64,000 bases of DNA from Viridothelium virens (Eukaryota > Ascomycota > Dothideomycetes > Trypetheliales > Trypetheliaceae). Under the pieces are notes generated by a model. It ran no database searches. It saw only the letters and a program-made list of their open reading frames with translations, and was not told where the DNA came from. Shown here piece after piece: positions 1,000 to 16,100 of this stretch (its first letter is position 1; every line of letters starts with the position of its first letter). The stretch covers positions 248,001 to 312,000 of the forward strand of contig ML991788.1 in the NCBI GenBank assembly GCA_010094025.1, written 5' to 3'. The position numbers and the translations under genes are program-made.

Positions 1000-2052
1000 A
1001 TGCCTTTCACTCTGGGTGATCTACTGTTGCTGGCCGACAAGACCATCCTCAACCCCTGGCTCTCTGGGCCAATTCTCGCAGGACTGAGACTACTCGATGT
1101 TTGCATACAGCGTTCAATCGTCACATCTGATGCCTCCATCTTCTTGCCATCGCCCGGACTAGGAAAGGCCTTAACATGGCTCTTCGGAATCGGCGTCACC
1201 CTCCGCGCAAACCGAACCCTCAGTCGAAGAGCCCTTAACAACGGCACCACCGCCCACTTCGACTGGAACAAAGAGATCATCCTCATCACCGGCGGCGCAG
1301 GCGGCATCGGCGGCGAAACCGCGCGCCTCCTCGCCACGCGCGGGTCCCCCATCATCGTCCTCGACGTCCTCCCCCTCAGCTACGACCCCCCTCCAAACCT
1401 GCACTACTACCAAGTCGACCTCACCGACCACGTTGCTCTCGAGAGCACCGCGGCACGCATCCGCAAAGACATCGGCGACCCGAGCATCATCGTCGCGAAC
1501 GCGGGGATCTGCCGGGGCAAAGCGCTGCTGGACGCGTCGCCGCGCGACATCTCGCTGACGTTCGGAGTCAACACGCTCGGGCTGATCTGGACCGCGAAGA
1601 CGTTCCTGCCATCCCTCGCCCAGCGCAACCACGGCCACTTCCTCGTCGTCTCTTCTCAAACCGCGCACTCCGCGACTGCGCGCTTGGTCGACTACTCGGC
1701 GTCGAAGGCGGCGGCGCTCGCGGTCTACGAGGGCTTGCACTCCGAGCTGAAGCACGTGTACAACGCGCCGAAGGTGCGGGTCTCGTGCGTCGCGCCGTGT
1801 GTGGTGGATACGGAGATGTTTCGTGGGATTAAGGCGCCTTCGAATTTTTTGGTGCCGAGACTGCGGCCGAGGGAGGTGGCGGATTTGATCGCGGAGACGC
1901 TGTGGATGGGGGAGAGTAGGAATCTCATGGTGCCGGCGTTTGCGTATATCAGTCCGCCGACGAGAGCACTGCCGGAGTGGTGGAGGGTTGCGTTGGCGGA
2001 TGGGGGGGCGCCGGCGATGACGGAGTTGAGGCCGCATCGACCGATGGATTGA
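1000..2052 (+). CDS. Membrane-anchored short-chain dehydrogenase/reductase (RDH10/SDR16C-like)
   Basis: Single-exon gene of 350 residues. It is an NAD(P)-dependent alcohol/ketone oxidoreductase of the classical SDR family, probably held on the endoplasmic reticulum or lipid-droplet surface by its hydrophobic N-terminus. The nucleotide-binding motif TGGAGGIG starts at residue 97, an NAG motif follows, and the catalytic pair in YSASK is Y232/K236. The open frame extends upstream to 952 only through a non-ATG codon; the ATG at 1000 follows a good context (CAAG) and begins the usual hydrophobic stretch. It lies tail to tail with a P450 gene beside the copalyl diphosphate synthase gene, so oxidation of a diterpene alcohol is a reasonable inferred role. 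The exact substrate is unknown. Confidence 0.88.
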   Translation: MPFTLGDLLLLADKTILNPWLSGPILAGLRLLDVCIQRSIVTSDASIFLPSPGLGKALTWLFGIGVTLRANRTLSRRALNNGTTAHFDWNKEIILITGGAGGIGGETARLLATRGSPIIVLDVLPLSYDPPPNLHYYQVDLTDHVALESTAARIRKDIGDPSIIVANAGICRGKALLDASPRDISLTFGVNTLGLIWTAKTFLPSLAQRNHGHFLVVSSQTAHSATARLVDYSASKAAALAVYEGLHSELKHVYNAPKVRVSCVAPCVVDTEMFRGIKAPSNFLVPRLRPREVADLIAETLWMGESRNLMVPAFAYISPPTRALPEWWRVALADGGAPAMTELRPHRPMD

Positions 2053-2564
2053 TTGGTCGGTACATTGACTGGTACCTTGGTTGAGTAAAAGGGAAAGATG
2101 AAGATGCTCGGGAGCGATCGCCTTTGAGAGCGTGATGAAAGTGTGGGAATTTTTGTGCGGGCAAGGCTTCAGATTGTGCTGCAATCCACAGATTGACAGG
2201 GCTTGAGATATTCGACGAAATTGGAATGATGCATACATGTATGATTCAAGATTGTTTCAGTTACAAGTGGCGTAGTATGCAGGTAAGCACTCACGCACTG
2301 TGATGGAAAATCCCTGTTCGGATTGCAGCATTTAGGACGATCCAATGTTTTTACTCTAATAAGTAGAAGTCGCGATGCACTAATGTACGTATCCAACGAT
2401 AATATAGAAATTTCCTGGTATATATTTTGAAGGCTCAGATGATCCATGCCAAATTAACTTCTTCGCTCTCAGCTCGTATTCATCCCTACACTTGTAGGTT
2501 AATCTAGTAATATGCGTTGCCGCGATTAGTGACCGCCTTTTGAAGGAGGCAGAGCCTCATCAAT
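2053..2564. terminator. Convergent 3' intergenic region
   Basis: About 510 bp between the stop codons of the plus-strand dehydrogenase and the minus-strand P450. No gene is visible. Both 3' untranslated regions and polyadenylation sites must lie here, but I cannot place them exactly. Confidence 0.4.
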
Positions 2565-4408
2565 TCACCATCCTCGAGTCTTCTTCATCGCGACTTTCAG
2601 GCCTCCCTTCGGCCTACTTGTCAACCCTGTCACGATCTGAACTTCTTCGTGATCGACAAGCTCAAACTCGAAACTGCCCACAAGAACGGCTAGAAGACAC
2701 GCAAATTCCCCTCTCGCGAAGGCCTGCCCAATACATGACCGCGGGCCTATATGCACATGTCAGCAAATGCGCCAAAAGTCACAATTATGTTTCACGTCTG
2801 CGTGATGATTCGAAGTGACTGTCTCGGGAGTCGCGGCTCAGAGTGCAGTGGTGTGGAGTGATGCATAACAGAAGAGGACAACAGTGGGAAAAAAAGAAAG
2901 CTATCTTTCAATGTGATTTGGTGGGGAGCTCGCGCGGCAACTGCATACGTTGGTGGCACAGTGCGGATAATGCAGTCCGGAGGCTTACCGTGCAGGAATG
3001 TCATGTAGGCAAAGTTGTTTTCTGCGCCTCCGCTATTCGCCCGTCCAGGACCCATCCACCTCTCAGGGTTGAACTCTGTGGCGTCGGCTCCCCAGAGCGC
3101 TTTCGAGTGATTTACAGCACGCATACTGATAACGATCTCAGTACCTTTAGGTACCACCTGATCCAGGATAGTGGTTGTGCGAGTGGCGACTCGTTTAGTT
3201 ATGCCCGCTGGAGGATAGAATCGCAGCACTTCGTTGCAGACTGCATGGAGATAAGGCAAGTTATCTATTACCTCTGCAGTGATGCCTTCACCTTTCTCAG
3301 AAGTGACTGGGTTTGGCAGTCTGCACTGGACTTCTTCGCGCAATCGGCTTTGAACCTGAGGATTATTGCAGAGTGCGAGGATAGCCCACGACATAGAGCT
3401 GGCAGTCGTTTCGTGCCCGGCCGCAAGAAATGTCAGAACTTGGTTAGCAAGGCCCTCTTCATCAAAGAGGCCAGAGCTCATGGCTACAGAGACGATATCC
3501 GTTGCGGCCAGCTTTCCACCTTGGTCAATAACGTTTTGCTTCTGTCGAATGAGTCGTCTGGCAATGCTCTTGAGCTGTTTTGAAGCAATTGCGATGGCAT
3601 CTTGGGGCTGAATTGGCAGATACCAGGATAATAAGTTCGTTAGAGACGAGGCTATCATCGCCAATTTACTAGGCCGATGAATCGGATCAAAAACGTCTCT
3701 GTAAGCGTTCGAGACCTCATTATCAGGGTTTTGGATGGCACCGAAGTCATGGCCCATTCCTGCGACACCTATAATGTCAAGAGTCGCTCGAGTGATCCAT
3801 TCTGTGATATTGACGATAGAAAATGACGCGCTATTCACAGGAAGAGCTCGACTTAATTCAGCTGCTTTCGACCAGAAGACAGGATAGAGATCCTTGATGT
3901 GCCTATGTTGGAAGGCGGGGAGAAGTCTTCTCCGTTGCATCTTATGCTCATCTCCTTCTGCAATAATGAGGCCCACACCGAGTATTCTTCCCAGACCGAA
4001 TCGTAAGCGGTGAGGTTTGCAAAATTCATAGTTTCTCTGAACCAAAACTTCCGAAAGTGCTTTGGGGCTTGTGAGAAATACGCGCTCCTTGTTAAATTTC
4101 ATGCGATATCCCAAAAGACCATCGTTGGGAATTTCATTAATCCAGCGGTTAAGTGGTATTCCAGAGCGTTCGTCCGGGACGTGACGAACTTGTCCCATTA
4201 GCAGGGAGTTGCCGGGTGGTCCTGGAAGATGGCGGAGAGGACTGAACAGAAACGGCCACAAGAGGATCCTCCATATTGCAAGCAAGGAGAGGTGAATTGG
4301 CAGACAGAAGAAGAAAGCAGATGTGTACGAATGACCAGGAAACAAATGAGGGAGATACGCCGCTTCAATGAGCAGAGCCAGAAGCGTCAATTTCCAAGTC
4401 GACGGCAT
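2565..4408 (-). CDS. Cytochrome P450 monooxygenase A
   Basis: Two exons, 4408-2989 and 2746-2565, give 533 residues; the join is in phase and restores the haem loop. It is a haem monooxygenase with two hydrophobic N-terminal segments and a PGPPG hinge, so it should sit in the endoplasmic reticulum membrane and take electrons from cytochrome P450 reductase. Seen motifs are the I-helix AGHETT (330-335), ExxR (E393-R396), NPERW, and the haem-binding FLHGPRSCIG with the cysteine ligand at about residue 478. The splice junction falls inside this last motif. The intron is 242 bp, long for this window. The gene neighbours a second P450 and the copalyl diphosphate synthase, so I infer that it oxidises a labdane-type diterpene. 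Substrate and position of attack cannot be read from the sequence. Confidence 0.88.
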
Positions 4409-5494
4409 TCTGACCTTGGCAGAACCCGTGAACGAGAGGTGATAACATCTTTAGGAAAAAGGTTCCAGGGTACACTCAACACGGATAACCTTCCTAGCCA
4501 TTCCGCGGTGCGCGACGGAGTCTACGGAGTAAGCCAACCCCATTGTCTCTATTATCCCTTGTCCTGGCCCGTACACGGGTGACAGAAAAAGCAGTACTCT
4601 ACATCAACATTGGGCGCGATCCCGCGTGCCCGCCAGGATTACCAGTGGGTGGCCGCACCATTGAATTGTTAGGAGAAGATACTGTACATAACTCAACTAT
4701 CCGCGAGTACTGTCACCCGCGTGGGCGGTGGGCCGGTGAGCCGTTGCGCACTGACAAGACATCACGTGATCTACCCCTACGCATCCACGGCATCCAACGT
4801 TTGGTGCGCGACAGCTCGCAGGACAAGTCATCATCACTGGCATGCAAGTACCCCTAGCCACTGGTAGCGTCCGTATTGCTTCTCCTGCCATGTGACCGTA
4901 CTAACGACTAGCAGCAGGACGATCGATGCATGCACAAACATACGCTAATCCTCCTAATATCCTACGGCGTATTTACGGGGATCTGAATAGGTGGCTGCCT
5001 GGTCCTTGGTTGCGCTGGCAGGCTGACACTTCGATACCGTTTTCTGGCGCCGAGAGTGATTCTGGCCGGCTCTTGGAGACACTATTGCGCGGTTGACGTC
5101 AGAAAAAGCAGGTTATATTCTATGCTCCGAGATAGGAACATCTGGAGTCTGCGTGCTGACACCCTTGTTACGTGAGCCATTTTCTGCTCGGACCAGTTGC
5201 TTTTGCCATTGAGCGTTATTATGGGATATGCCTTCGCCCAACTAACATCAGGGAAAATAATATGGCTTACGCACTACCATCCCGATTAGTTTTACTAGGA
5301 GCTACCTTATGTATTCCAATCCTTCGCTTCCGCACCACGCCAAGCAACATGGAGGCACGCGTATGCTAAATTTCAGCTCCCTCAATATCATTCCTGCAGC
5401 TCATTAATTCGCGACTCCCTGGAAGATGCTGCAGATAGATCTTAGACTACTGCAGTCTTATGTGCGCTTGAGGTCGGACCCAGGAAGCCTTTGT
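4409..5494. other. Intergenic region upstream of P450 A
   Basis: About 1.1 kb between the start of P450 A and the end of P450 B, both on the minus strand. It should carry the P450 A promoter and the P450 B 3' end. I see no coding region or clear repeat. Confidence 0.45.
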
Positions 5495-7251
5495 CTAACG
5501 TTTAACTGGGGTCATTTTGATCATTAGGGGGATTTTTTCCCACTGTGAATCACTAAGAATTAGCATGGTTACATTGACTTGGAGGCGAGTGACTGACAGT
5601 TGTGTAGATCATCTGGTCTTCGATCCAGTTTTGCTTTTCGTCTGCAAGTGCAAAATCAAAGTGCCAGAGCATCTTGGCCAAGATGAGACGAACTTCAATG
5701 TTTGCAAGACTGTCATTGGAATTAGCAAACAAGTCGTCGTGTATCGCTCAAGACTTGCAACGTACTTTCTACCAATGCAGTTTCTCGGCCCAAAAGAGAA
5801 AGGCTGCAGGGCTTCGCGTTTGTCGTTTGCATATTTCGGATCAGCATCAGGTAGCCATCTTTCTGGAACATATTCATCCGGATCGACGAAGTTGGTTGGC
5901 GAGCGAAATACCGCATATTGAGCCATGCCTAGGGCAGTCTAAATAGAAGGCTTCATATCAGCAGCAAACTCTGAGTAGCCTTATGTTCGTGTCTTTGCCA
6001 AACATACATCTCCTGGTAGCCAGTCACCGACAATGTAAGCACCCTCGGCAGGCGTACGACGGGGATGGCTACCGGCAGCCGGTGGGTAGAGCCTGAATGA
6101 TTCATCGGTAACGGCATTGATGTACCGAAGCTCGCTAAGGCGGGCTATATTGATTTGGTCTCCAGACGTGAATGAACCTCGGACTTCTTCCAGGAGCTTG
6201 TTCATCACACGAGGGTTCTTGAGCAAAAGCCAGATGGTTCCGGATAAGATGGTAGCAGTCGTTTCACTACCAGCAATAACCATGAGATTGGCATTGGCAA
6301 CAAGATCTGGTATTGTGAGGCGTCCCTTCTCTTCTTCGATAAGAAGATGGCTCATGAAGTCGACGTATTCTGGATTACGGGTTTTGCGCCGGCGTACTTT
6401 CTCTTCGACAAGCTCGATGTGCCACTGGCGCCTCTTAACCATCTTCTGAGGCATGAGCCGGAGGATAAGGGAGCGAATATCGAAGAAACGCTGCAGACAG
6501 CGAATGTGGTGGACGTAGACAATGGCATTGAAGATCATTGACATCCAAGGGTGATATTCAGTGTTTTGGAGGCAGTCAAATGGTTCATCAAAAGCCAGGT
6601 GCCCTATGATGTCGAATGTGACATACTTGCCAACTAGGTCAGCGCAAGATACCCGAAGCAAAGCGCGGAAGAGGAGTTCCTTACATTGAACCATCTCACA
6701 AGATTAAATGGCTTCCCGTCAGAATGTAATTCCGTCAGTCGTGCAACGAGGAGATCAATGTAGTGGAGGAGAACAGGTTCCTGTCCTTTCAACACCTTGT
6801 CGGAGAATGCATTGGACAACAACTTCCTGAGTCTGCCATGATCCACTCGACTGGCATTGATGATGGTCGGATAGCGATGGTCGGCATCAGTGTTTTCTGC
6901 AGGGTCCTTTCTATTCTCGGGAAGACCGTTACGGAAGCCATAGATATCTTTCCATGCTGCAGCACCGGTGAAGGACAGCTCGTTGGGGGCAATCCGTACA
7001 ATTTCGCCATGTTTGAGATGGAGATCATGAACAACGATGGGAAATCTTCCTGAGAATTGTTGTCGCAGCCACCAGAGACGAGTTACTGCGGCAAGTCTCG
7101 GACCAGGGTATTTTGCCAACGGGGAGAAATAGAGATTATAAATGGCACGATAAACGACATAAACCACTCCTAACAGGACGCCGAGAAGACCAACCCACTT
7201 CAGACTGAGCAAGCCGCGCGTATAGGACGATTCTGAGTTTAGAGGAGACAT
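5495..7251 (-). CDS. Cytochrome P450 monooxygenase B
   Basis: Five exons (7251-6685, 6625-6008, 5938-5766, 5709-5598, 5542-5495) join in phase to 505 residues. The short last exon encodes the usual C-terminal strand (WEKIPL...MTPV); without it the frame would run into an unrelated tail. Seen are one N-terminal membrane helix followed by YPGPRLA, the I-helix AGSETT (307-312), ExxR in ESFR (364-367), PERWLP, and the haem loop [10 protein letters not shown] with cysteine at about 449. The layout resembles the isotrichodermin-C15-hydroxylase-like P450s common in fungal toxin and terpenoid clusters. It is divergent from the copalyl diphosphate synthase gene across a shared 1.5-kb region, which suggests joint control. 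Oxidation of the cyclised diterpene is inferred; the substrate is unknown. Confidence 0.9.
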
Positions 7252-8723
7252 TTTGTAAACCTTGGGAAGGACGATGGCGAGGCTATCGTCGGATCAAGTC
7301 GAGTCCTTGACGACCAGGGAACATAGCTACCTTACATGTAGGCTCTTACATTAGTACGGTACATAATCAATACAGCACCAAAGTTCGATGATGGTGTATG
7401 TGCCAACGACGCTCCCCTCTATGCATCACCTCGACGCTACCAGTCTTAGCCAAGGACTTCGGATGCAGTGGATAGATTGGTATGGAGTCTGGGTGGTACC
7501 TACCTCCCTAGGAAGTCGGAAGGTACTCCCTATCAGGTTCAGCTCGTCGCGCGGGGTTGCGGCCCCACAAAATTCTGCTGCACGACTATGACCACGACCA
7601 TGACCACGACCACGACCACGACGCCGACGCCGCCGCCGACTGACTTCCAACATCTTCTCTCTACCTTAGTCTACCACTCCTCGCCATCTCCCTCTCAGCC
7701 AATGGCTCTGCATTCATCCCACAATAGATACGAGGATGCGGACTCGACCGATTATGCGAGGCTGAAGTGGATCCTGCTGCACCATTTTGCTCTTTCTGGG
7801 CCTGCTGCATGTCGCCATGCAAACAAGATTGGCTCCTCGTCCGGTAGGATTACGTGCAATAACCTTTCGAGCCGCCGACTTCTCTGCGATCGTCCTCCGT
7901 TCAGACATGTAGTACCCTCCATCAAGACCAATTCATGGTAAGATATGCTTCGATGCGACCAGGACCACAGTGGTGTGACTCTCTATTTCCGACTGCCATG
8001 GAATTCCTGGCGTTCTTACTCAGCACCAATTACATTGGAGTCCCTCACCGAGATATTTTTTTTTCTTCTGTAGAGTCTTATTTGGGTAAACGCTCTTTAT
8101 CAACGCCCACCACTTTTAGACTTACCGAAACCCTTGCTGTGGTTTCTATAGGCTGAATTAGACCGAAAAAGCCTCATGCTCACGAGGCGACCAGGTTTCT
8201 AAATTCTGGATTCGAGCCCACCCTGCCGTCTTCAAACACGGGACCACTTGAAACTACTCGAGTGGCTAGCATGAACTAGTCGTTGCTTCTCTGTCTTTGC
8301 TCCACCAACAGAAATTGGAGGTACTAGACAGTCCCGTCCACGTCAAGGGAACTGCGAGATGGCCCGACTAGCTTCACGCAGTCTTGCTTCAGCGTCAAGC
8401 AGGATGAGAAGACCTTCCCGTCCCTAGCTCTAATCCTGGAATGCCACCCCACGACGCAGACAGCCAAACACGGGAATTTACTACGCCACCTATGAAAGCT
8501 TGTCTTGGATTCCTTACGATCTTTGGCCGCACATTACGACATGTGACAATCGGCTAGCGTTACCATGATCAGGGCTTTCGGAATAGGTCCAGAGACCCTT
8601 TTGTAGATCAAGCCTCCTGTAGGTGAGCCGTTGTCGAACCGTACCTTTAGATGTACTTAATTAGCTTACTATAAGTCTACGTCACTAATCATTCTTTTCT
8701 CTCTTTGTGCGGAAACACTGAGT
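7252..8723. promoter_or_regulatory. Divergent promoter between P450 B and the diterpene synthase
   Basis: The region of 1.47 kb separates the start codons of P450 B (minus) and the chimeric copalyl diphosphate synthase (plus), so it must drive both genes. It contains a short GACCAC/GACGCC repeat near 7.6 kb. I see no convincing gene inside. I could not identify a specific regulator site, and no cluster transcription factor is in the window. Confidence 0.6.
7583..7640. repeat. Imperfect GACCAC/GACGCC tandem repeat
   Basis: A run of six-base units of the type GACCAC, changing to GACGCC and GCC near its right end, lies within the divergent promoter. It is a simple-sequence tract; whether it binds a protein is not known. 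Confidence 0.7.
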
Positions 8724-11700
8724 ATGCATTCAGATTTGCTTGAGGACAGGGCAAGAGCCTTGATCGTTAAATTAACAGACGGGTGTGATGGATATTTTGG
8801 CAGGGGCTCTATGAGTTCTGCAGTCTATGACACAGCCTGGGTTTCTATGATATCTAAATCGAACGGTCTCTCAAGCCATTGGTTATTCCCTGAGTGTTTT
8901 ACACATCTCCTTGAACAGCAGTGTGAAGATGGCAGTTGGCCGTCATACTCATCCCAGAGTGATGGGATTCTCAATACGGCAGCATCGCTTTTGGCATTGA
9001 AGAAGCATTCTAAAGATACCCAACAACAACACCTCACGGCTATGCAGAACCTTACCGGGCGCATCGAGAAGGCAACCTCAGCCCTGAGGTCATTGCTGGA
9101 TCAGTGGAAGGTTGAAGCAACTGTTCATGTAGGCTTCGAGATCCTCATTCCTGCTCTACTGGCCTACCTTGAACAAGAGGGGCTTCATTTCGACTTTCCA
9201 GGGAAAACGCAGCTATATGCAATCAATGCAAAGAAACTAACAAAGTTCAAACCCGAGTATCTCTACACAAACGTCAAGATGAGCGCGCTTCATTCCCTCG
9301 AAGCGTTCATCGGGAAGCTCGACTTCGACCGCGTACAGCACCACAAGGTGAGGGGTGCCTTCATGGCTTCTCCATCCTCCACCGCTGCTTACCTCATGAA
9401 TTCCTCTACCTGGGACAATGAGTGCGAAGCATACCTAAGGAATGTTGTGGTTAATGGAGAAGGAAACTCGACCGGCGGTATACCTAGTGCGTTTCCCTCG
9501 AATATTTTCGAGTTAACATGGGTAATTTCTGCAGAATCTCCATTCTCGTAGCATCCTATCTGATCATTGGTAACAGGGCCTCTCTACCTTGTCTGAAGGA
9601 GGCTTTGCTCTTCAAAACATTGCACCTATTCAGACATCGAAAGCAATAGACTTCTTGAGCCAAACGTTCGCAGAGGAGAATGGTTTATTGGGTTTCGGTA
9701 TGTACCTGATCAGTCGCCTTGGGCATCTATTTCATTCTTTACAAAGGCTCCTACTGATCCCCGCGCAGCCCCATACGTCGGTGCGGATGCGGATGACACA
9801 GCCAAAACGATCCTCAGCCTTAATTTGATGGGTTGTCCAACTTCACCTCGGACCCTACTAGAAGAATTCGAGGACAAGACTCACTTCAAGACATATCAAC
9901 AGGAAAGAGATCCGAGCTTCAGTGCAAATTGCAATGTTTTAAACGCCCTCCTCCACGTCGAAACGCCTTCCGACTACACCCCCCAAATAGAAAAGACTTT
10001 AGAATTCCTTTGTACAACATTCCAGAACTCAAATAGAACCGTACGAGATAAATGGGTTAGTACTCTCGAATAGTCACTCGAGGCCATATACTGACGAACA
10101 TCACAGAACATATCTCCTTTCTATCCATTCATGTTGATGATGCAGGCATCTACTCGACTTCTGCAGCTCTGGAGATCAGGATGTCTTTCGGCTATCTCTG
10201 AGAACTTGGTGACAAAGACACTTCTATCTATCTTATCAGAGCTTTCCAGCAAGACACTTCATTCGCAGAATCGGCACGGCTCATGGGGCGACAAAGGATT
10301 TCAAGAGGAAACTGCCTACGCAGTATTGGTGTTGGCATACTCATTACATATTCCTTCCGTGCAAGATCTTGGCAAGGAGGTACATACTGCTATAGAAAAT
10401 GGTCGCACATTCTTAAAATCGAGAGCCACTGCCAAAAGAGAGGACCTCTGGGTTGAAAAGGTCACCTATGCTTCCGAGATACTTTCCGAGTCATACATAC
10501 TCGCGGCGCTGAACATTCCTCTTCCTGCGCAGCGCCACGACTCTCCATTGTCAGTCACGGAATCTATTGGCTACACGAATGGCAATGCAGCTTCCGCACT
10601 CAACAGTATCGAGACCAATGGTGTCAAGACTGGACGCATCAACGGCTCGAAGGACGTCACATCTAACGGAACTGGCTTGAATCATATCGATTGCGTCAAT
10701 GATTCACTCGAGAATCACGTCAATACTGGTGCCACTGTCGCCGCCATCGATGTTAGATCTGGAGAGATGAACCCCCCGGTGTCAAACGGCACCAATGGTG
10801 GTCAGTGGCAAGGAACTGGTCTCAACGGTCTTCCAAAAAGGTTCGCACTGGAAAAGACGCCCTTCTCGACAAGACGGCAATTCAATGTAGACGAGGGACA
10901 GACCGTGTCAAACTCTACTTGGTCTCTGGAAAACGAGCGCATCCTTCTGAGCCCGTTTGACTACCTGGAACAGGAACCGGGCAAAGACATACGAACACAA
11001 TTTATCCGAGCATTTAACACCTGGCTTGATGTACCAACCGAGAAAGTTAAGGTCATTGCGAATGTTGTGAAAATGCTCCATACCGCTTCCCTCCTCATCG
11101 ACGACATCGAAGACTCTTCCGTCCTCCGCCGCGGCGTTCCGGTAGCTCATAGCATCTTCGGTATACCGCAGACCTTCAATTCTGGCAATTATGTTTACTT
11201 CCTTGCTCTCCAGGAAGTTCAGAAGCTCCGACAACCCCAAGCTACTAACGTCTTTGTGCAAGAACTGCTTAATCTTCACCGAGGCCAAGGCATGGATCTC
11301 TACTGGCGCGACTCCCTGATCTGTCCCTCCGAGCACGAGTACCTCGACATGGTCAGCAACAAGACCGGAGGACTGTTCCGACTCGCCGTCAAACTGATGG
11401 AGGTCGAAAGTCCGCACGAGCGCAACTGCGAACAGCTTGTGGATCTGATGGGCCGCATCTTCCAGATTCGGGACGACTACATGAATCTCTTCTCCACCGA
11501 TTACACACACAACAAAGGGCTCTGCGAGGACCTGACTGAAGGCAAATTTTCCTTTCCGATCATTCACAGTATCCGGAGTGATCCAGCGAATCGGCAACTG
11601 ATGAACATCTTGAAGCAGAAGAGCTCCGAGGAGAGGATCAAGAGATATGCCGTGTCAATTATGGAGAGGACGGGCAGTTTCGATTACACGAGGGTATTCG

Positions 11701-11810
11701 TGCGGACTTTGAAGGGGCAGGCGAGTGAGCTCATTGAACGTTATCAAGCTCAGGGCTGGGGGAGCGGTGACGGCATTAGGAAGATACTAGTGCGTTTGGA
11801 TGTGGAATGA
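8724..11810 (+). CDS. Chimeric copalyl diphosphate synthase / GGPP synthase (PvCPS-like)
   Basis: Four exons (8724-9521, 9577-9697, 9769-10055, 10107-11810) join in phase to 969 residues. The N-terminal half is a class II diterpene cyclase: SAVYDTAWV at 32-40, EDGSW near 72, the acid motif DADD at 313-316, and a GSWG repeat near 458. After a Ser/Asn/Gly-rich linker (about 545-675) comes a complete trans-prenyltransferase: GKDIR at 694-698, first aspartate motif DDIED at 734-738, second motif RDDY near 857-860. The predicted reactions are elongation of IPP and DMAPP/FPP to GGPP, then protonation-started cyclisation to copalyl diphosphate. The prenyltransferase domain replaces the class I synthase domain found in bifunctional CPS/KS enzymes. 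This is the known layout of Penicillium verruculosum and P. fellutanum CPS. Which stereoisomer is made cannot be told. It is the core enzyme of the cluster. Confidence 0.93.
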
Positions 11811-12837: not shown

Positions 12838-14049
12838 TCACACTGTGTGTTCAGGCCTTGGAGGTGGTGCTGAGCGGCTGGGCGCTGAACGCTCTTGTAT
12901 CGGAATGCCCTTCTCAAGCTCTTCTTTATCCAAGAAATGGCGAGGAGCGACACCCGTATCGAGCTGATCCGTCCAGTCGGCGGACGCGTCTCTGGATGCT
13001 TTTGTCTCAGTTTGGCCCAGAGCAGCCGCTGAGCGCTGGAGAGATATTTCATCGAGTTCGTGGTAGTTTCTTCTGCCTGATGCGAATGATTGCTGATGAT
13101 CCGTAACTTTTCTAGTCCCTGCAGTAGAAGTCTGTGGTGGCGAGCGTCTAAAGAAGCGCGGTATGAAGGGGAGGCAACAGACAATAAGTCCGCTTGCAAC
13201 CTCAGCCACAGCCCACAGATACACAGGCACAAGTGCGTATGAGATGTCCGTAGCACTGTCAGTCTTGATGCTTTCGACCAGACGCATGGCGCTCGACACG
13301 CAGGCGCTATGAAGTATTAGCAAAGTGAAAGATGGTACGGCAAGGTTGCCTTTGACTCACAAGATGCCTGTTGCGTACACCACGCTGATGCCGACTTTCC
13401 TTCTGCTATTGACTTGTAATCTCAAAATCCATGAGATAGGGAGCGCTAAGATGAGGAGATCCTCGCCCAGGTTTACGGCAGCCGATGCGATGAAGAGGAC
13501 ACCAATATCAATACAGTGGCCCGGCGTGCTGGGGTTCCAAATCTTTTCGCGGGGAATGCATACGAATATCTCCAAGAAAAGATTGATTGTAAGATAGATG
13601 GTGTTCAGGGCGATCATACCAACCAGGAGCCACCAGCGAGAGGTCCTGGCTTGAGGAACAAAGATCTCCATGAGCTGCAACAAAATAGCGGTCTTTGTGA
13701 CTAAAAGCGCGACAACATAGATGATTTGCTGATCATTGAGGACTTCGGCATATTTGGAGAAGTGTGCCGCTGTGAGATCCCAGCCATGCCTTCCATTGCC
13801 GTCCTTTAATGTCGAGAAGCCAAGGGATATGAGCACCACTAAGAGACACCATGCCAGAATGCAGACGTAGTCGACTACAAGCCATTTTTTCAGGATGAAA
13901 AACCTGACGTAGGAACGAATGGACACCAGCACGGTTGGAAACACCAGAAGAATGATCGAAGAGACCAAAACGGCATCTCTACGACCGCTTGGTGGATTCG
14001 CAAGATCCGGGACCACACCTGGAGGAGGCGGCAAAGCTGGCAAGTCCAT
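12838..14049 (-). CDS. PTH11-type rhodopsin-domain integral membrane protein
   Basis: Two exons (14049-13361 and 13306-12838) give 385 residues. The protein has about seven hydrophobic segments in the first 290 residues and a polar C-terminal tail. Family marks are the conserved loop PGHCID, the pattern of small and aromatic residues in the later helices, and CLPFIPRFF before the tail. These fit the fungal rhodopsin domain (Fung_rhodopsin, PF20684) of PTH11-related proteins, which are candidate plasma-membrane receptors. Ligand and signalling partner are unknown. It lies between the diterpene synthase and a phosphatase-fold gene; membership in the cluster is possible but unproven, since this family is very large and scattered across the genome. 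Confidence 0.82.
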
Positions 14050-15095
14050 TGTCGTGGGCTTCTAGGATGAATCTCATAGTCTACAACGACATGCGGCGCA
14101 TGGAGGATTAACAGTGGAAGATAAGAAGAGCGCAGAAGGTCCAAGAAAAGCCCTGAGACACGGACCTCTATGACAACCGGTCATTGTTACGACCCCCTTG
14201 CAGACTCCATAGGCTACACGTCTCAGCGCAAAAGCCTATGCAGGGTGACTGTACTATCAAGCGAGAGGCTATGTATGAATCCACACTTTCAGGGAAGGAG
14301 CCGACAGGCGTTTTGTCCCGGCAGCTGAAGATCTTGGACGTGCAAGTTGAGGGGTGAGTGATACGACTGACGATCAACAAGGGCCAGGAGCAGTGGGGTG
14401 AGTGGCTTACGGAAGCGGCTGCGTTGTGTTGGCTTTTCTGTCTGTAGATGGAAGGCGAAGGTGCACTATTGGTCCTATCGTCGACAGGCTTGCGGCTAAA
14501 GTCTCCTGCGTCTCGTTCACAATCCTACCATCCCAGATCGAGTAGTGCAAGGGTATGTCGCGCTCAGGGTATCAAGTTGGTGTGCATAACACAGAGGTTG
14601 TCCAGACCAAAATCCGATGCTGTGAGGAAGGCATCACCAAACAGTTACCAACAGTACACGAATATATCGGTAGCATGATTTCCTTTATGTCACGCACCTC
14701 TTTCTGGTACCATCTGTCTGACCGGACATTGCAACAAGTCATCCATGTGAAGAAGTGATTTCCAAGAGACGGATCTGACGCGTTGCGCTGACGGGAGGAT
14801 CCACGGGAACATCCGAGCGCTATGACGTTATTGGATAACCTCCTTCCATGTGGGTGCCCGAAGTGGAGATCCATCGTATCCGTATTAGTATGACTACATA
14901 CCTACCTTGTCTTGCAGATCAAGATCAGCTCAGATGCCCAGGCTTTGAAGACTTTATGCTCTTCATCCTGAGACGCGTGTGGATGAATGATATCAAGAGC
15001 TTCGTAGGATACCACGGGTGTGGGCTCAACTAAAAGGAAGAAGATCTCCATGTGAAGGCGATCACAAGCTCATCTGACTCCGCGGAACAAAAAGA
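14050..15095. promoter_or_regulatory. Divergent intergenic region
   Basis: About 1.05 kb between the starts of the rhodopsin-domain gene (minus) and the EEP hydrolase gene (plus). It should hold both promoters. No gene or repeat was recognised. Confidence 0.45.
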
Positions 15096-16100
15096 ATGGT
15101 TCAAAGAAACTCTGCACAACCGTTACCTTTACGCATCCTCACACATAATATTCGCTACGCAACTTCGACTCCTTCCAAGAATGAACTTCCTTGGTCCGAG
15201 CGATGTCCCTTGATTCTAAGCCAGCTTAGATATCACACGCGCATTCTCGATGGTCTTAGCGCTAGCTCAAACCTAGCATCTTGTTTCATTTGTCTTCAAG
15301 AAGCACTGCACTCTCAACTCCAAGATATCCTAACAGGTCTGAATAACCTCTCTCCTCAGGGGAGCTCTACTCTGGCCGCTGAACTGCCTACTGGGCCGGC
15401 ATGGGCGCACATTGGCGTCGGTCGAGAGGATGGCAGAAAAGAAGGAGAATACAGCCCTATCATCTATCCTATCCAGGCCTTCAAGCTTCTAGATTTCCAA
15501 ACCAGGTGGTTGAGTCCAACACCTGAGCAGCCAAGCAAAGGGTGGGATGCTGGAAGCACCCGAATTTTGACCGTCGGGGTCTTTGAACATCGCGCCATCC
15601 GGCGCAGACTTATTGCGTGCAACACACACTTAGACAATGAAGGCACAGTCGCGCGAAAGGAAAGTATTCCAATTATTCTAGAGACGATCAAAACAATGAG
15701 GCAGAAATGGGCAGACGCAGATGGCGAGGAACCGCAATTCTTTCTTGCAGGCGACTTCAATTCGTTCCCCACGCAGGAAGCATATCTTGATACTGCACGA
15801 AGCGGGGTTCTGGGAGACATCATTGACTTTGTTCCCCTTAACCAACGCTATGGAAATGAAGTTACGTTCACGGGATTTGTTCCGGATACCGATGAAGACA
15901 AGGATGATATTGGAAGAATCGATTTTATTTGGTTAGGTCCCAGAAAGAATGTTCATGGTATCCAAGAACGGCAGCCTAGACCTTTGTCAGCAGGATGGGA
16001 AGTCGCAGGCTACTCAGTTCTACCAAACGTGTTTGATGATGGAGTCTTTTGTAGCGATCACAGGTGCGTGGTAGGCGACGTTACTCTTTTTAACAAGTGA
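15096..16100 (+). CDS. Endonuclease/exonuclease/phosphatase (EEP) family hydrolase
   Basis: Single-exon gene of 334 residues with the full metal-dependent EEP fold. Motifs in order are LTHNIRYA (N of the first metal site), CLQEAL (metal-binding Glu), CNTHLDNEG (catalytic His region), FLAGDFNSFP (Asp/Asn), RIDFIWLG, and SDHRCVV (terminal Asp-His pair). There is no signal peptide, so it is probably intracellular. The fold serves nucleases, inositol-phosphate phosphatases and other phosphodiesterases, so the substrate cannot be named. Similar fungal proteins are usually annotated only as EEP-domain proteins. It is 3.3 kb from the diterpene synthase. A role in removing diphosphate from a terpenoid intermediate is only speculation, because known fungal terpenoid phosphatases are mostly HAD-type. 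Confidence 0.88.
   Translation: MVQRNSAQPLPLRILTHNIRYATSTPSKNELPWSERCPLILSQLRYHTRILDGLSASSNLASCFICLQEALHSQLQDILTGLNNLSPQGSSTLAAELPTGPAWAHIGVGREDGRKEGEYSPIIYPIQAFKLLDFQTRWLSPTPEQPSKGWDAGSTRILTVGVFEHRAIRRRLIACNTHLDNEGTVARKESIPIILETIKTMRQKWADADGEEPQFFLAGDFNSFPTQEAYLDTARSGVLGDIIDFVPLNQRYGNEVTFTGFVPDTDEDKDDIGRIDFIWLGPRKNVHGIQERQPRPLSAGWEVAGYSVLPNVFDDGVFCSDHRCVVGDVTLFNK

What the first reader, a model, noticed from the sequence alone, without database searches (positions are those of the whole stretch)
1000..11810. Labdane-type diterpenoid cluster built on a chimeric cyclase-prenyltransferase
Seen: one 969-residue frame set with both a class II cyclase (DADD at 313-316) and a full GGPP synthase (DDIED, RDDY), two intact P450s and an SDR. 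Known: this layout is that of Penicillium verruculosum CPS, which feeds its own GGPP to the cyclase. Inference: the locus makes an oxidised labdane diterpenoid that I cannot match to a described product.
Basis: partly seen in the sequence, partly recalled or inferred. Interest (0 to 1): 0.85.

Follow-up and report, generated by a model that had tools for sequence, protein, structure and literature searches.

The report
Lichen labdane cluster with fused enzymes
A bark lichen fungus carries a gene cluster that probably makes an oxidised labdane diterpenoid, built on a known kind of two-in-one cyclase and, just outside the window, on a second two-in-one enzyme (oxidase plus phosphatase) that turned up here only in related lichen fungi and one unnamed contig.

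Summary
Confirmed and extended. The gene at 8724-11810 (four exons, 969 aa) is a complete class II cyclase/GGPP synthase chimera: DADD 313-316, DDIED 734-738, RDDY 857-860. It aligns nearly end to end with solved copalyl diphosphate synthase 9q3i and is about 51% identical to Talaromyces homologues. It falls in one clade of chimeric CPS with three branches: Eurotiales, black Dothideomycetes and Trypetheliaceae. The contig is Viridothelium virens (Trypetheliaceae). The SDR and both P450s are intact; P450-1 appears linked to the CPS in Eurotiales and Dothideomycetes too.

The window cuts the cluster. 44 bases before base 1 starts an 818-aa gene: a P450 fused, within one exon, to a tyrosine-phosphatase-family domain with an intact HCxxGKDRTG loop. 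Of 120 listed phosphatase relatives only five have both domains: four Trypetheliaceae species and one unnamed contig. It could supply the phosphatase step that Eurotiales clusters carry. Its P450 half lacks the usual I-helix acid/threonine pair. A glycosyltransferase and an MFS gene adjoin. Best reading: GGPP to copalyl-PP to copalol to an oxidised, possibly glycosylated labdane. No product, transcript or assay was available.

The parts
8724..11810 (+). Chimeric copalyl diphosphate synthase: class II cyclase (about residues 1-545), NG-rich linker, GGPP synthase (about 671-969); exons 8724-9521, 9577-9697, 9769-10055, 10107-11810
5495..7251 (-). P450-2, 505 aa, exons 7251-6685, 6625-6008, 5938-5766, 5709-5598, 5542-5495; heme motif [11 protein letters not shown]-helix AGSETTA
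   Evidence: 68% identical to the N-terminal half of Elasticomyces P0145
2565..4408 (-). P450-1, 533 aa, exons 4408-2989 and 2746-2565; heme motif HGPRSCIG, I-helix AGHETTA
   Evidence: shares contig lengths or near locus tags with CPS homologues
1000..2052 (+). Short-chain dehydrogenase/reductase, 350 aa, single exon, YSASK motif. Further parts lie OUTSIDE the window to the left and cannot be given window coordinates: P450-phosphatase fusion C18:245312-247956 (-), glycosyltransferase C18:243653-245047 (+), MFS transporter C18:241197-243056 (-); window base 1 is C18:248001
   Evidence: outside parts:

Best explanation
A labdane diterpenoid cluster of the lichen-forming fungus Viridothelium virens, built on two fused enzymes. 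(1) The C-terminal prenyltransferase of the CPS makes GGPP and the N-terminal class II domain protonates and cyclises it to copalyl diphosphate (strong inference by homology). (2) The phosphatase half of the P450-phosphatase fusion removes the diphosphate to give copalol (inferred; substrate not shown). (3) The P450 half and P450-1/P450-2 oxidise the side chain and the decalin, and the SDR adjusts a carbonyl/alcohol (inferred from the labd pathway). (4) The glycosyltransferase and MFS pump may glycosylate and export the product (position only). The product is an oxidised labdane, possibly a glycoside, not matched to a known compound.
For: CPS: near full-length match to 9q3i, both halves to 8v0f, prenyltransferase half to 6v0k. 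Of 566 homologues 120 are listed; rows P0001-P0036 carry PF00348, the other 84 do not. 28 of 33 rows (P0001-P0033) match all three motif patterns I wrote. In a tree of our CPS, 19 of those 36 rows and nine CPS/KS rows, the chimeras are one side of a branch at 100/98. The exon-1 piece found only itself in the genome. CPS with P450-1: 14 of 36 CPS rows share a contig length with one of the first 37 of 120 P450-1 rows, and tags are two apart in the T. eluteriae MAG, Recurvomyces and Talaromyces atroroseus. Fusion: one exon carries both domains; five of 120 listed rows have both domains, one being V. virens itself; heme Cys, ExxR and HCxxGKDRTG are kept in 5 of 5 (ours plus P0241, P0242, P0243, P0245). 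The Talaromyces labd cluster uses CPS, phosphatase, P450s and an SDR (PMC10744899).
Against: No expression data, product or assay. The phosphatase family (PF13350) resembles PtpB-type tyrosine phosphatases, and I found no precedent for it acting on a prenyl diphosphate (listings; passages of two papers). Bogoriella's fusion and CPS rows are on different contig lengths (58295, 28367), and no fusion row for the T. eluteriae MAG is among the 120 listed, so linkage is not shown there. Talaromyces stipitatus and Penicilliopsis PF13350 rows lie on other contig lengths than their CPS, so the domain need not correspond to LabdB. Glycosyltransferase and MFS membership rests on position. A GC-MS survey of Trypethelium virens thalli has no word beginning 'labd' in its main text.
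Confidence: 0.76

Rival explanations
1. The chimeric CPS cluster is real, but the P450-phosphatase fusion is not part of the terpene route: its phosphatase acts on proteins, phosphoinositides or inositol pyrophosphates and the P450 serves another pathway; copalyl diphosphate is hydrolysed by a housekeeping phosphatase.
For: PtpB-like sequence and fold matches, with Siw14 only beyond E 0.001; the labd authors allow that a host phosphatase of A. nidulans does the step (PMC10744899); the P450 half is 91-97% conserved against 65-88% for the phosphatase half, which hints at different constraints; Bogoriella linkage not shown.
Against: The fusion starts 1 kb from the SDR in a divergent pair and shares contig length with the CPS in T. 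subeluteriae and Bathelium; the four named species with the fusion all also have the CPS.
Confidence: 0.3
2. The cyclase makes another class II product (ent- or syn-CPP, or a hydrated or rearranged labdane, halimane or clerodane diphosphate), so the end product is not a (+)-copalol derivative.
For: Only about 51% identity to Talaromyces enzymes; class II products switch with few residues (general knowledge).
Against: Motifs and alignment are continuous with solved CPS through the active-site stretch; the Talaromyces labd products derive from (+)-CPP (PMC10744899).
Confidence: 0.2
3. A relic: the cluster is silent or one enzyme is dead.
For: The Talaromyces labd cluster was not expressed in culture (PMC10744899).
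Against: The frames examined are open with catalytic motifs, and CPS, P450-1 and fusion relatives are kept in other Trypetheliaceae genera.
Confidence: 0.08

Closest known systems
PvCPS (Penicillium/Talaromyces verruculosum) and PfCPS (P. fellutanum); solved chains 9q3i, 8v0f, 6v0k (which chain is which enzyme is recalled)
   Same: N-terminal class II cyclase with DxDD, NG-rich linker, C-terminal GGPP synthase; colinear over residues 6-969 with 9q3i
   Different: About 51% identical to Talaromyces homologues, from a lichen-forming Dothideomycete; a separate branch of the clade
labd cluster of Talaromyces sp. HDN151403 (talarobicins; PMC10744899)
   Same: CPS chimera, phosphatase, P450s, SDR
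   Different: No ALDH or P450-methyltransferase among the frames I scanned here; a phosphatase domain is fused to a third P450; a glycosyltransferase and MFS gene adjoin
Fungal CPS/KS (ent-kaurene, aphidicolanol-type synthases)
   Same: Homologous class II cyclase half, 43-52% over a little more than half of the query (rows P0037-P0120)
   Different: No PF00348 domain in those rows; C-terminal half is a class I cyclase (general knowledge); exon-1 search found no paralogue in this genome
Astellolide phosphatases AstI/AstK (PMC5024094)
   Same: Dedicated removal of diphosphate after a protonation-initiated cyclisation
   Different: HAD-like, separate small proteins; here a cysteine-based PF13350 domain fused to a P450

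Membership tests
Chimeric (assembly-line) class II copalyl diphosphate synthases, PvCPS type | Class II DxDD cyclase and GGPP synthase with aspartate motifs in one frame | tested here: met
   DADD 313-316, DDIED 734-738, RDDY 857-860; last exon continuous from cyclase end through linker to prenyltransferase
Chimeric (assembly-line) class II copalyl diphosphate synthases, PvCPS type | Groups with chimeric relatives apart from CPS/KS | tested here: met
   20 chimeras against 9 CPS/KS rows, 100/98
Chimeric (assembly-line) class II copalyl diphosphate synthases, PvCPS type | Makes CPP from C5 units | not testable with these tools
   needs assay
labd-type labdane cluster | CPS plus phosphatase plus P450s and SDR side by side | tested here: met
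   the phosphatase is a fused PF13350 domain
labd-type labdane cluster | Phosphatase orthologous to LabdB | not tested
   LabdB sequence and family were not in hand
PF13350 cysteine phosphatases | HCx5R loop and fold | tested here: met
   HCAIGKDRTG at 701; Foldseek to 8dhj E 4.3e-13 on proxy P0245
Oxygen-activating cytochrome P450 (fusion's P450 half) | Heme Cys, ExxR | tested here: met
   FSQGSRACIG, KESYR in 5 of 5
Oxygen-activating cytochrome P450 (fusion's P450 half) | I-helix acid/Thr pair (AGx[DE]T; motif recalled) | tested here: not met
   AGSLSPS in 5 of 5; of five own-genome P450 matches compared, four read AGx[DE]T (L016, L019, L021, and L017 across an alignment gap), L018 does not

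The most novel reading that the evidence does not exclude
The Trypetheliaceae P450-phosphatase fusion is a single-chain copalyl diphosphate phosphatase/oxidase: a cysteine-based (PTP-type) prenyl-diphosphate phosphatase, for which I found no precedent, handing its alcohol to an attached P450 that has lost the I-helix acid/threonine pair and so may do something other than plain hydroxylation. With the cyclase-prenyltransferase chimera, two fused enzymes would carry out at least four successive steps.
Probability: 0.3. Interest if true: 0.72.

Novelty: new variant of a known kind. Interest (0 to 1): 0.52.

Why it matters
It places chimeric CPS in several genera of lichen-forming fungi as well as in moulds, gives a genetic lead for diterpenoids in a group for which my searches turned up no labdane report, and brings up a domain fusion (P450 plus PTP-family phosphatase) for which searches found no paper. 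If the phosphatase acts on copalyl diphosphate, it answers which enzyme opens the way from class II products to oxidised labdanes in these fungi.

Tried and rejected
Considered and rejected: that the two CPS halves are separate genes (the last exon runs from the cyclase end through the linker into the prenyltransferase); that P450-2 is truncated (a further GT-AG intron restores a normal end that agrees with Elasticomyces); that the exonuclease/endonuclease/phosphatase gene at 15078-16100 is the missing phosphatase (PF03372 at 1.3e-5; DNase I-like by general knowledge; a rhodopsin-domain gene lies between). P0145 I read as neighbouring P450-2 and P450-1 homologues run together by a gene model; that was not tested.

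Led nowhere: searches for papers on Viridothelium or Trypethelium with diterpenes (listings; passages of one paper), for a P450-phosphatase fusion (no paper), for a PTP-type prenyl phosphatase (listings; passages). NCBIfam gave no match over a curated cut-off among rows shown. AlphaFold of proxy P0245 was confident only over the phosphatase (mean pLDDT 59, 410 of 810 residues under 50), so the P450 half and the domain arrangement were not interpreted. Whether the Trypetheliaceae and black Dothideomycetes chimeras form one clade is undecided (AU p 0.18).

Limits: one search scored only proteins of about 264-838 aa and the 7995 candidates sharing most words, and listed 120 of 179, so five fusions is a lower bound and short stand-alone phosphatases are missed. 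In the motif count five of 33 rows missed a pattern (P0013, P0015, P0025, P0027, P0032) and were not followed up. Gene models of homologues are others' work; P0001 and P0004 lack a stretch that ours has. In the window I scanned by Pfam a selection of frames, not every frame.
Full report
What is there. The window is C18:248001-312000 of a 30.7-Mb genome. The gene at 8724-11810 has four exons and encodes 969 residues with DADD at 313-316 and DDIED at 734-738; RDDY falls at 857-860, counted on the alignment. Pfam sees only the prenyltransferase (PF00348, residues 680-921), which may explain why some relatives are named 'geranylgeranyl pyrophosphate synthetase'. phmmer against solved structures aligns residues 6-969 to 9q3i and both halves to 8v0f, both called 'Copalyl diphosphate synthase'; that these are PvCPS and PfCPS is my recollection. 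The SDR (1000-2052) and both P450s are intact.

Which organism. P0244, 'cytochrome P450 [Viridothelium virens]', lies on a contig of 430946 bases, the length of C18, and its first 717 of 720 residues equal my model of the neighbouring fusion gene. Viridothelium virens is in Trypetheliaceae, Trypetheliales, Dothideomycetes; that it is a bark lichen is general knowledge, in line with PMC10073361, where a lichen called Trypethelium virens is studied (passages). A MAG named Trypethelium eluteriae gives 98% (CPS, over 89%) and 100% (P450-1, over 87%) identity, so that MAG is this species or a very near one.

How wide the CPS is. Of 566 homologues, 120 are listed; P0001-P0036 carry PF00348 and the other 84 do not. 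Identities to our CPS are 87% T. subeluteriae (928 residues), 71% Bogoriella, 68% Bathelium, and 47-52% over full length for P0005, P0006, P0015, P0016, P0017 and P0033; P0013 aligns in two pieces at 52 and 62%. A tree of our CPS, 19 of the 36 rows and nine CPS/KS rows over the cyclase half puts the chimeras on one side (100/98), with three branches of bootstrap 100: Eurotiales, three black Dothideomycetes (Meristemomyces, Recurvomyces, Elasticomyces; the habit is recalled) and four Trypetheliaceae. The family of the named lichens and of Recurvomyces was looked up. The label 'Phyllocladan-16-alpha-ol synthase' on many Penicillium rows looks wrong for a protein with a prenyltransferase in its C-terminal half.

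Core partner. P450-1 has 1197 homologues at E <= 1e-120, 120 listed, so its family is large, but the nearest rows come mostly from CPS-bearing genera. Fourteen of 36 CPS rows share a contig length with one of the 37 P450-1 rows I compared, and tags are two apart in three species: Q9157_005666/005668, LTR78_000152/000150, UA08_07229/07231. In Elasticomyces one gene model runs a P450-2 relative (68%) into a P450-1 relative (61%).

What lies outside the window. In the 10 kb to the left, ORF L007:7315-9102 (minus) holds p450 (2.7e-30) and Y_phosphatase3 (3.2e-58) in one open frame. The spliced gene (L007 exons 9956-9559, 9509-9337, 9271-9153, 9078-7312; C18 = L007 + 238000) is 818 aa; its last exon spans the P450's C-terminal half and the whole phosphatase; FSQGSRACIG is at 454 and HCAIGKDRTG at 701. 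Searching with the phosphatase part returned 179 proteins, 120 listed; five have both domains: T. subeluteriae, Bogoriella megaspora, an unnamed ENA contig, V. virens itself, and Bathelium mastoideum. The four named ones are Trypetheliaceae. The ENA contig length also carries a P450-1 row. In Bogoriella the fusion and CPS rows have different contig lengths (58295, 28367), so linkage is not shown; the T. eluteriae MAG has no fusion row among the 120. Against four other fusions the P450 part (240-505) is 91-97% identical to ours, the phosphatase 65-88%, the linker 43-83%. The genome has two further PF13350 loci, one on the same contig at C18:412-413 kb, 46% identical over 111 residues, a possible source of the fused domain. 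Two PDB sequences match the phosphatase by phmmer, 8dhi and PtpB; by fold on proxy P0245 the seven matches under E 0.001 are the same two proteins, with the fungal Siw14 phosphatase just beyond. The P450's I-helix reads AGSLSPS in 5 of 5 fusions, while four of the five own-genome P450 matches compared read AGx[DE]T.

Further left are a glycosyltransferase (L007:5653-7047, tail to tail with the fusion) and an MFS gene (L007:3197-5056); beyond them are a frame with a P-loop read by eye and a HET-domain frame. To the right of the CPS is a fungal rhodopsin-domain gene. I take C18:241.2-259.8 kb as the likely cluster; the two leftmost genes rest on position.

How it most likely works. By homology the prenyltransferase makes GGPP and the class II domain makes copalyl diphosphate; in PvCPS the two are joined by a long flexible linker around a hexameric core (PMC8190136, passage). 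In Talaromyces the labd cluster (LabdA 89% to PvCPS) gives labdanes derived from (+)-CPP, with phosphatase LabdB, P450s LabdE/F, P450-methyltransferase LabdC, ALDH LabdD and SDR LabdG, which reduces a C-2 ketone (PMC10744899; first part of the text and passages). Here the phosphatase role would fall to the fused PF13350 domain. This is inference: that paper allows a host phosphatase to do the step, and the astellolide phosphatases are of the HAD family (PMC5024094, passages).

What is new. The CPS is a member of a described kind in lichen-forming fungi. The fusion is what I have not found described: searches found no paper with the terms used, in an open-licence library only. Verdict: new variant of a known kind, interest moderate, higher if the phosphatase acts on copalyl diphosphate.

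Noticed in passing
L007:7312-9956 (C18:245312-247956), 44 bases before window base 1: P450-tyrosine-phosphatase-family fusion gene, found in four Trypetheliaceae species and one unnamed contig; P450 half lacks the I-helix acid/Thr pair.
   Followed up: yes
C18:412065-413154 (L011-L013, L020): Stand-alone PF13350 phosphatase, 46% identical over 111 residues to the fused domain, on the same contig about 165 kb away: possible parent of the fusion.
   Followed up: partly
window 13360-14061 (-): Fungal rhodopsin-domain (PF20684) membrane protein next to the CPS; cluster membership unknown.
   Followed up: no
window 15078-16100: Endonuclease/exonuclease/phosphatase family protein, one open frame.
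   Followed up: no
P0007-P0011, P0014 and other Penicillium rows: Public name 'Phyllocladan-16-alpha-ol synthase' on proteins that carry a prenyltransferase domain; probably a mis-transferred name.
   Followed up: no
P0001, P0121 (T. eluteriae MAG): 98-100% identical to the V. virens genes, unlike T. subeluteriae (87%); the MAG's species name may be wrong.
   Followed up: no
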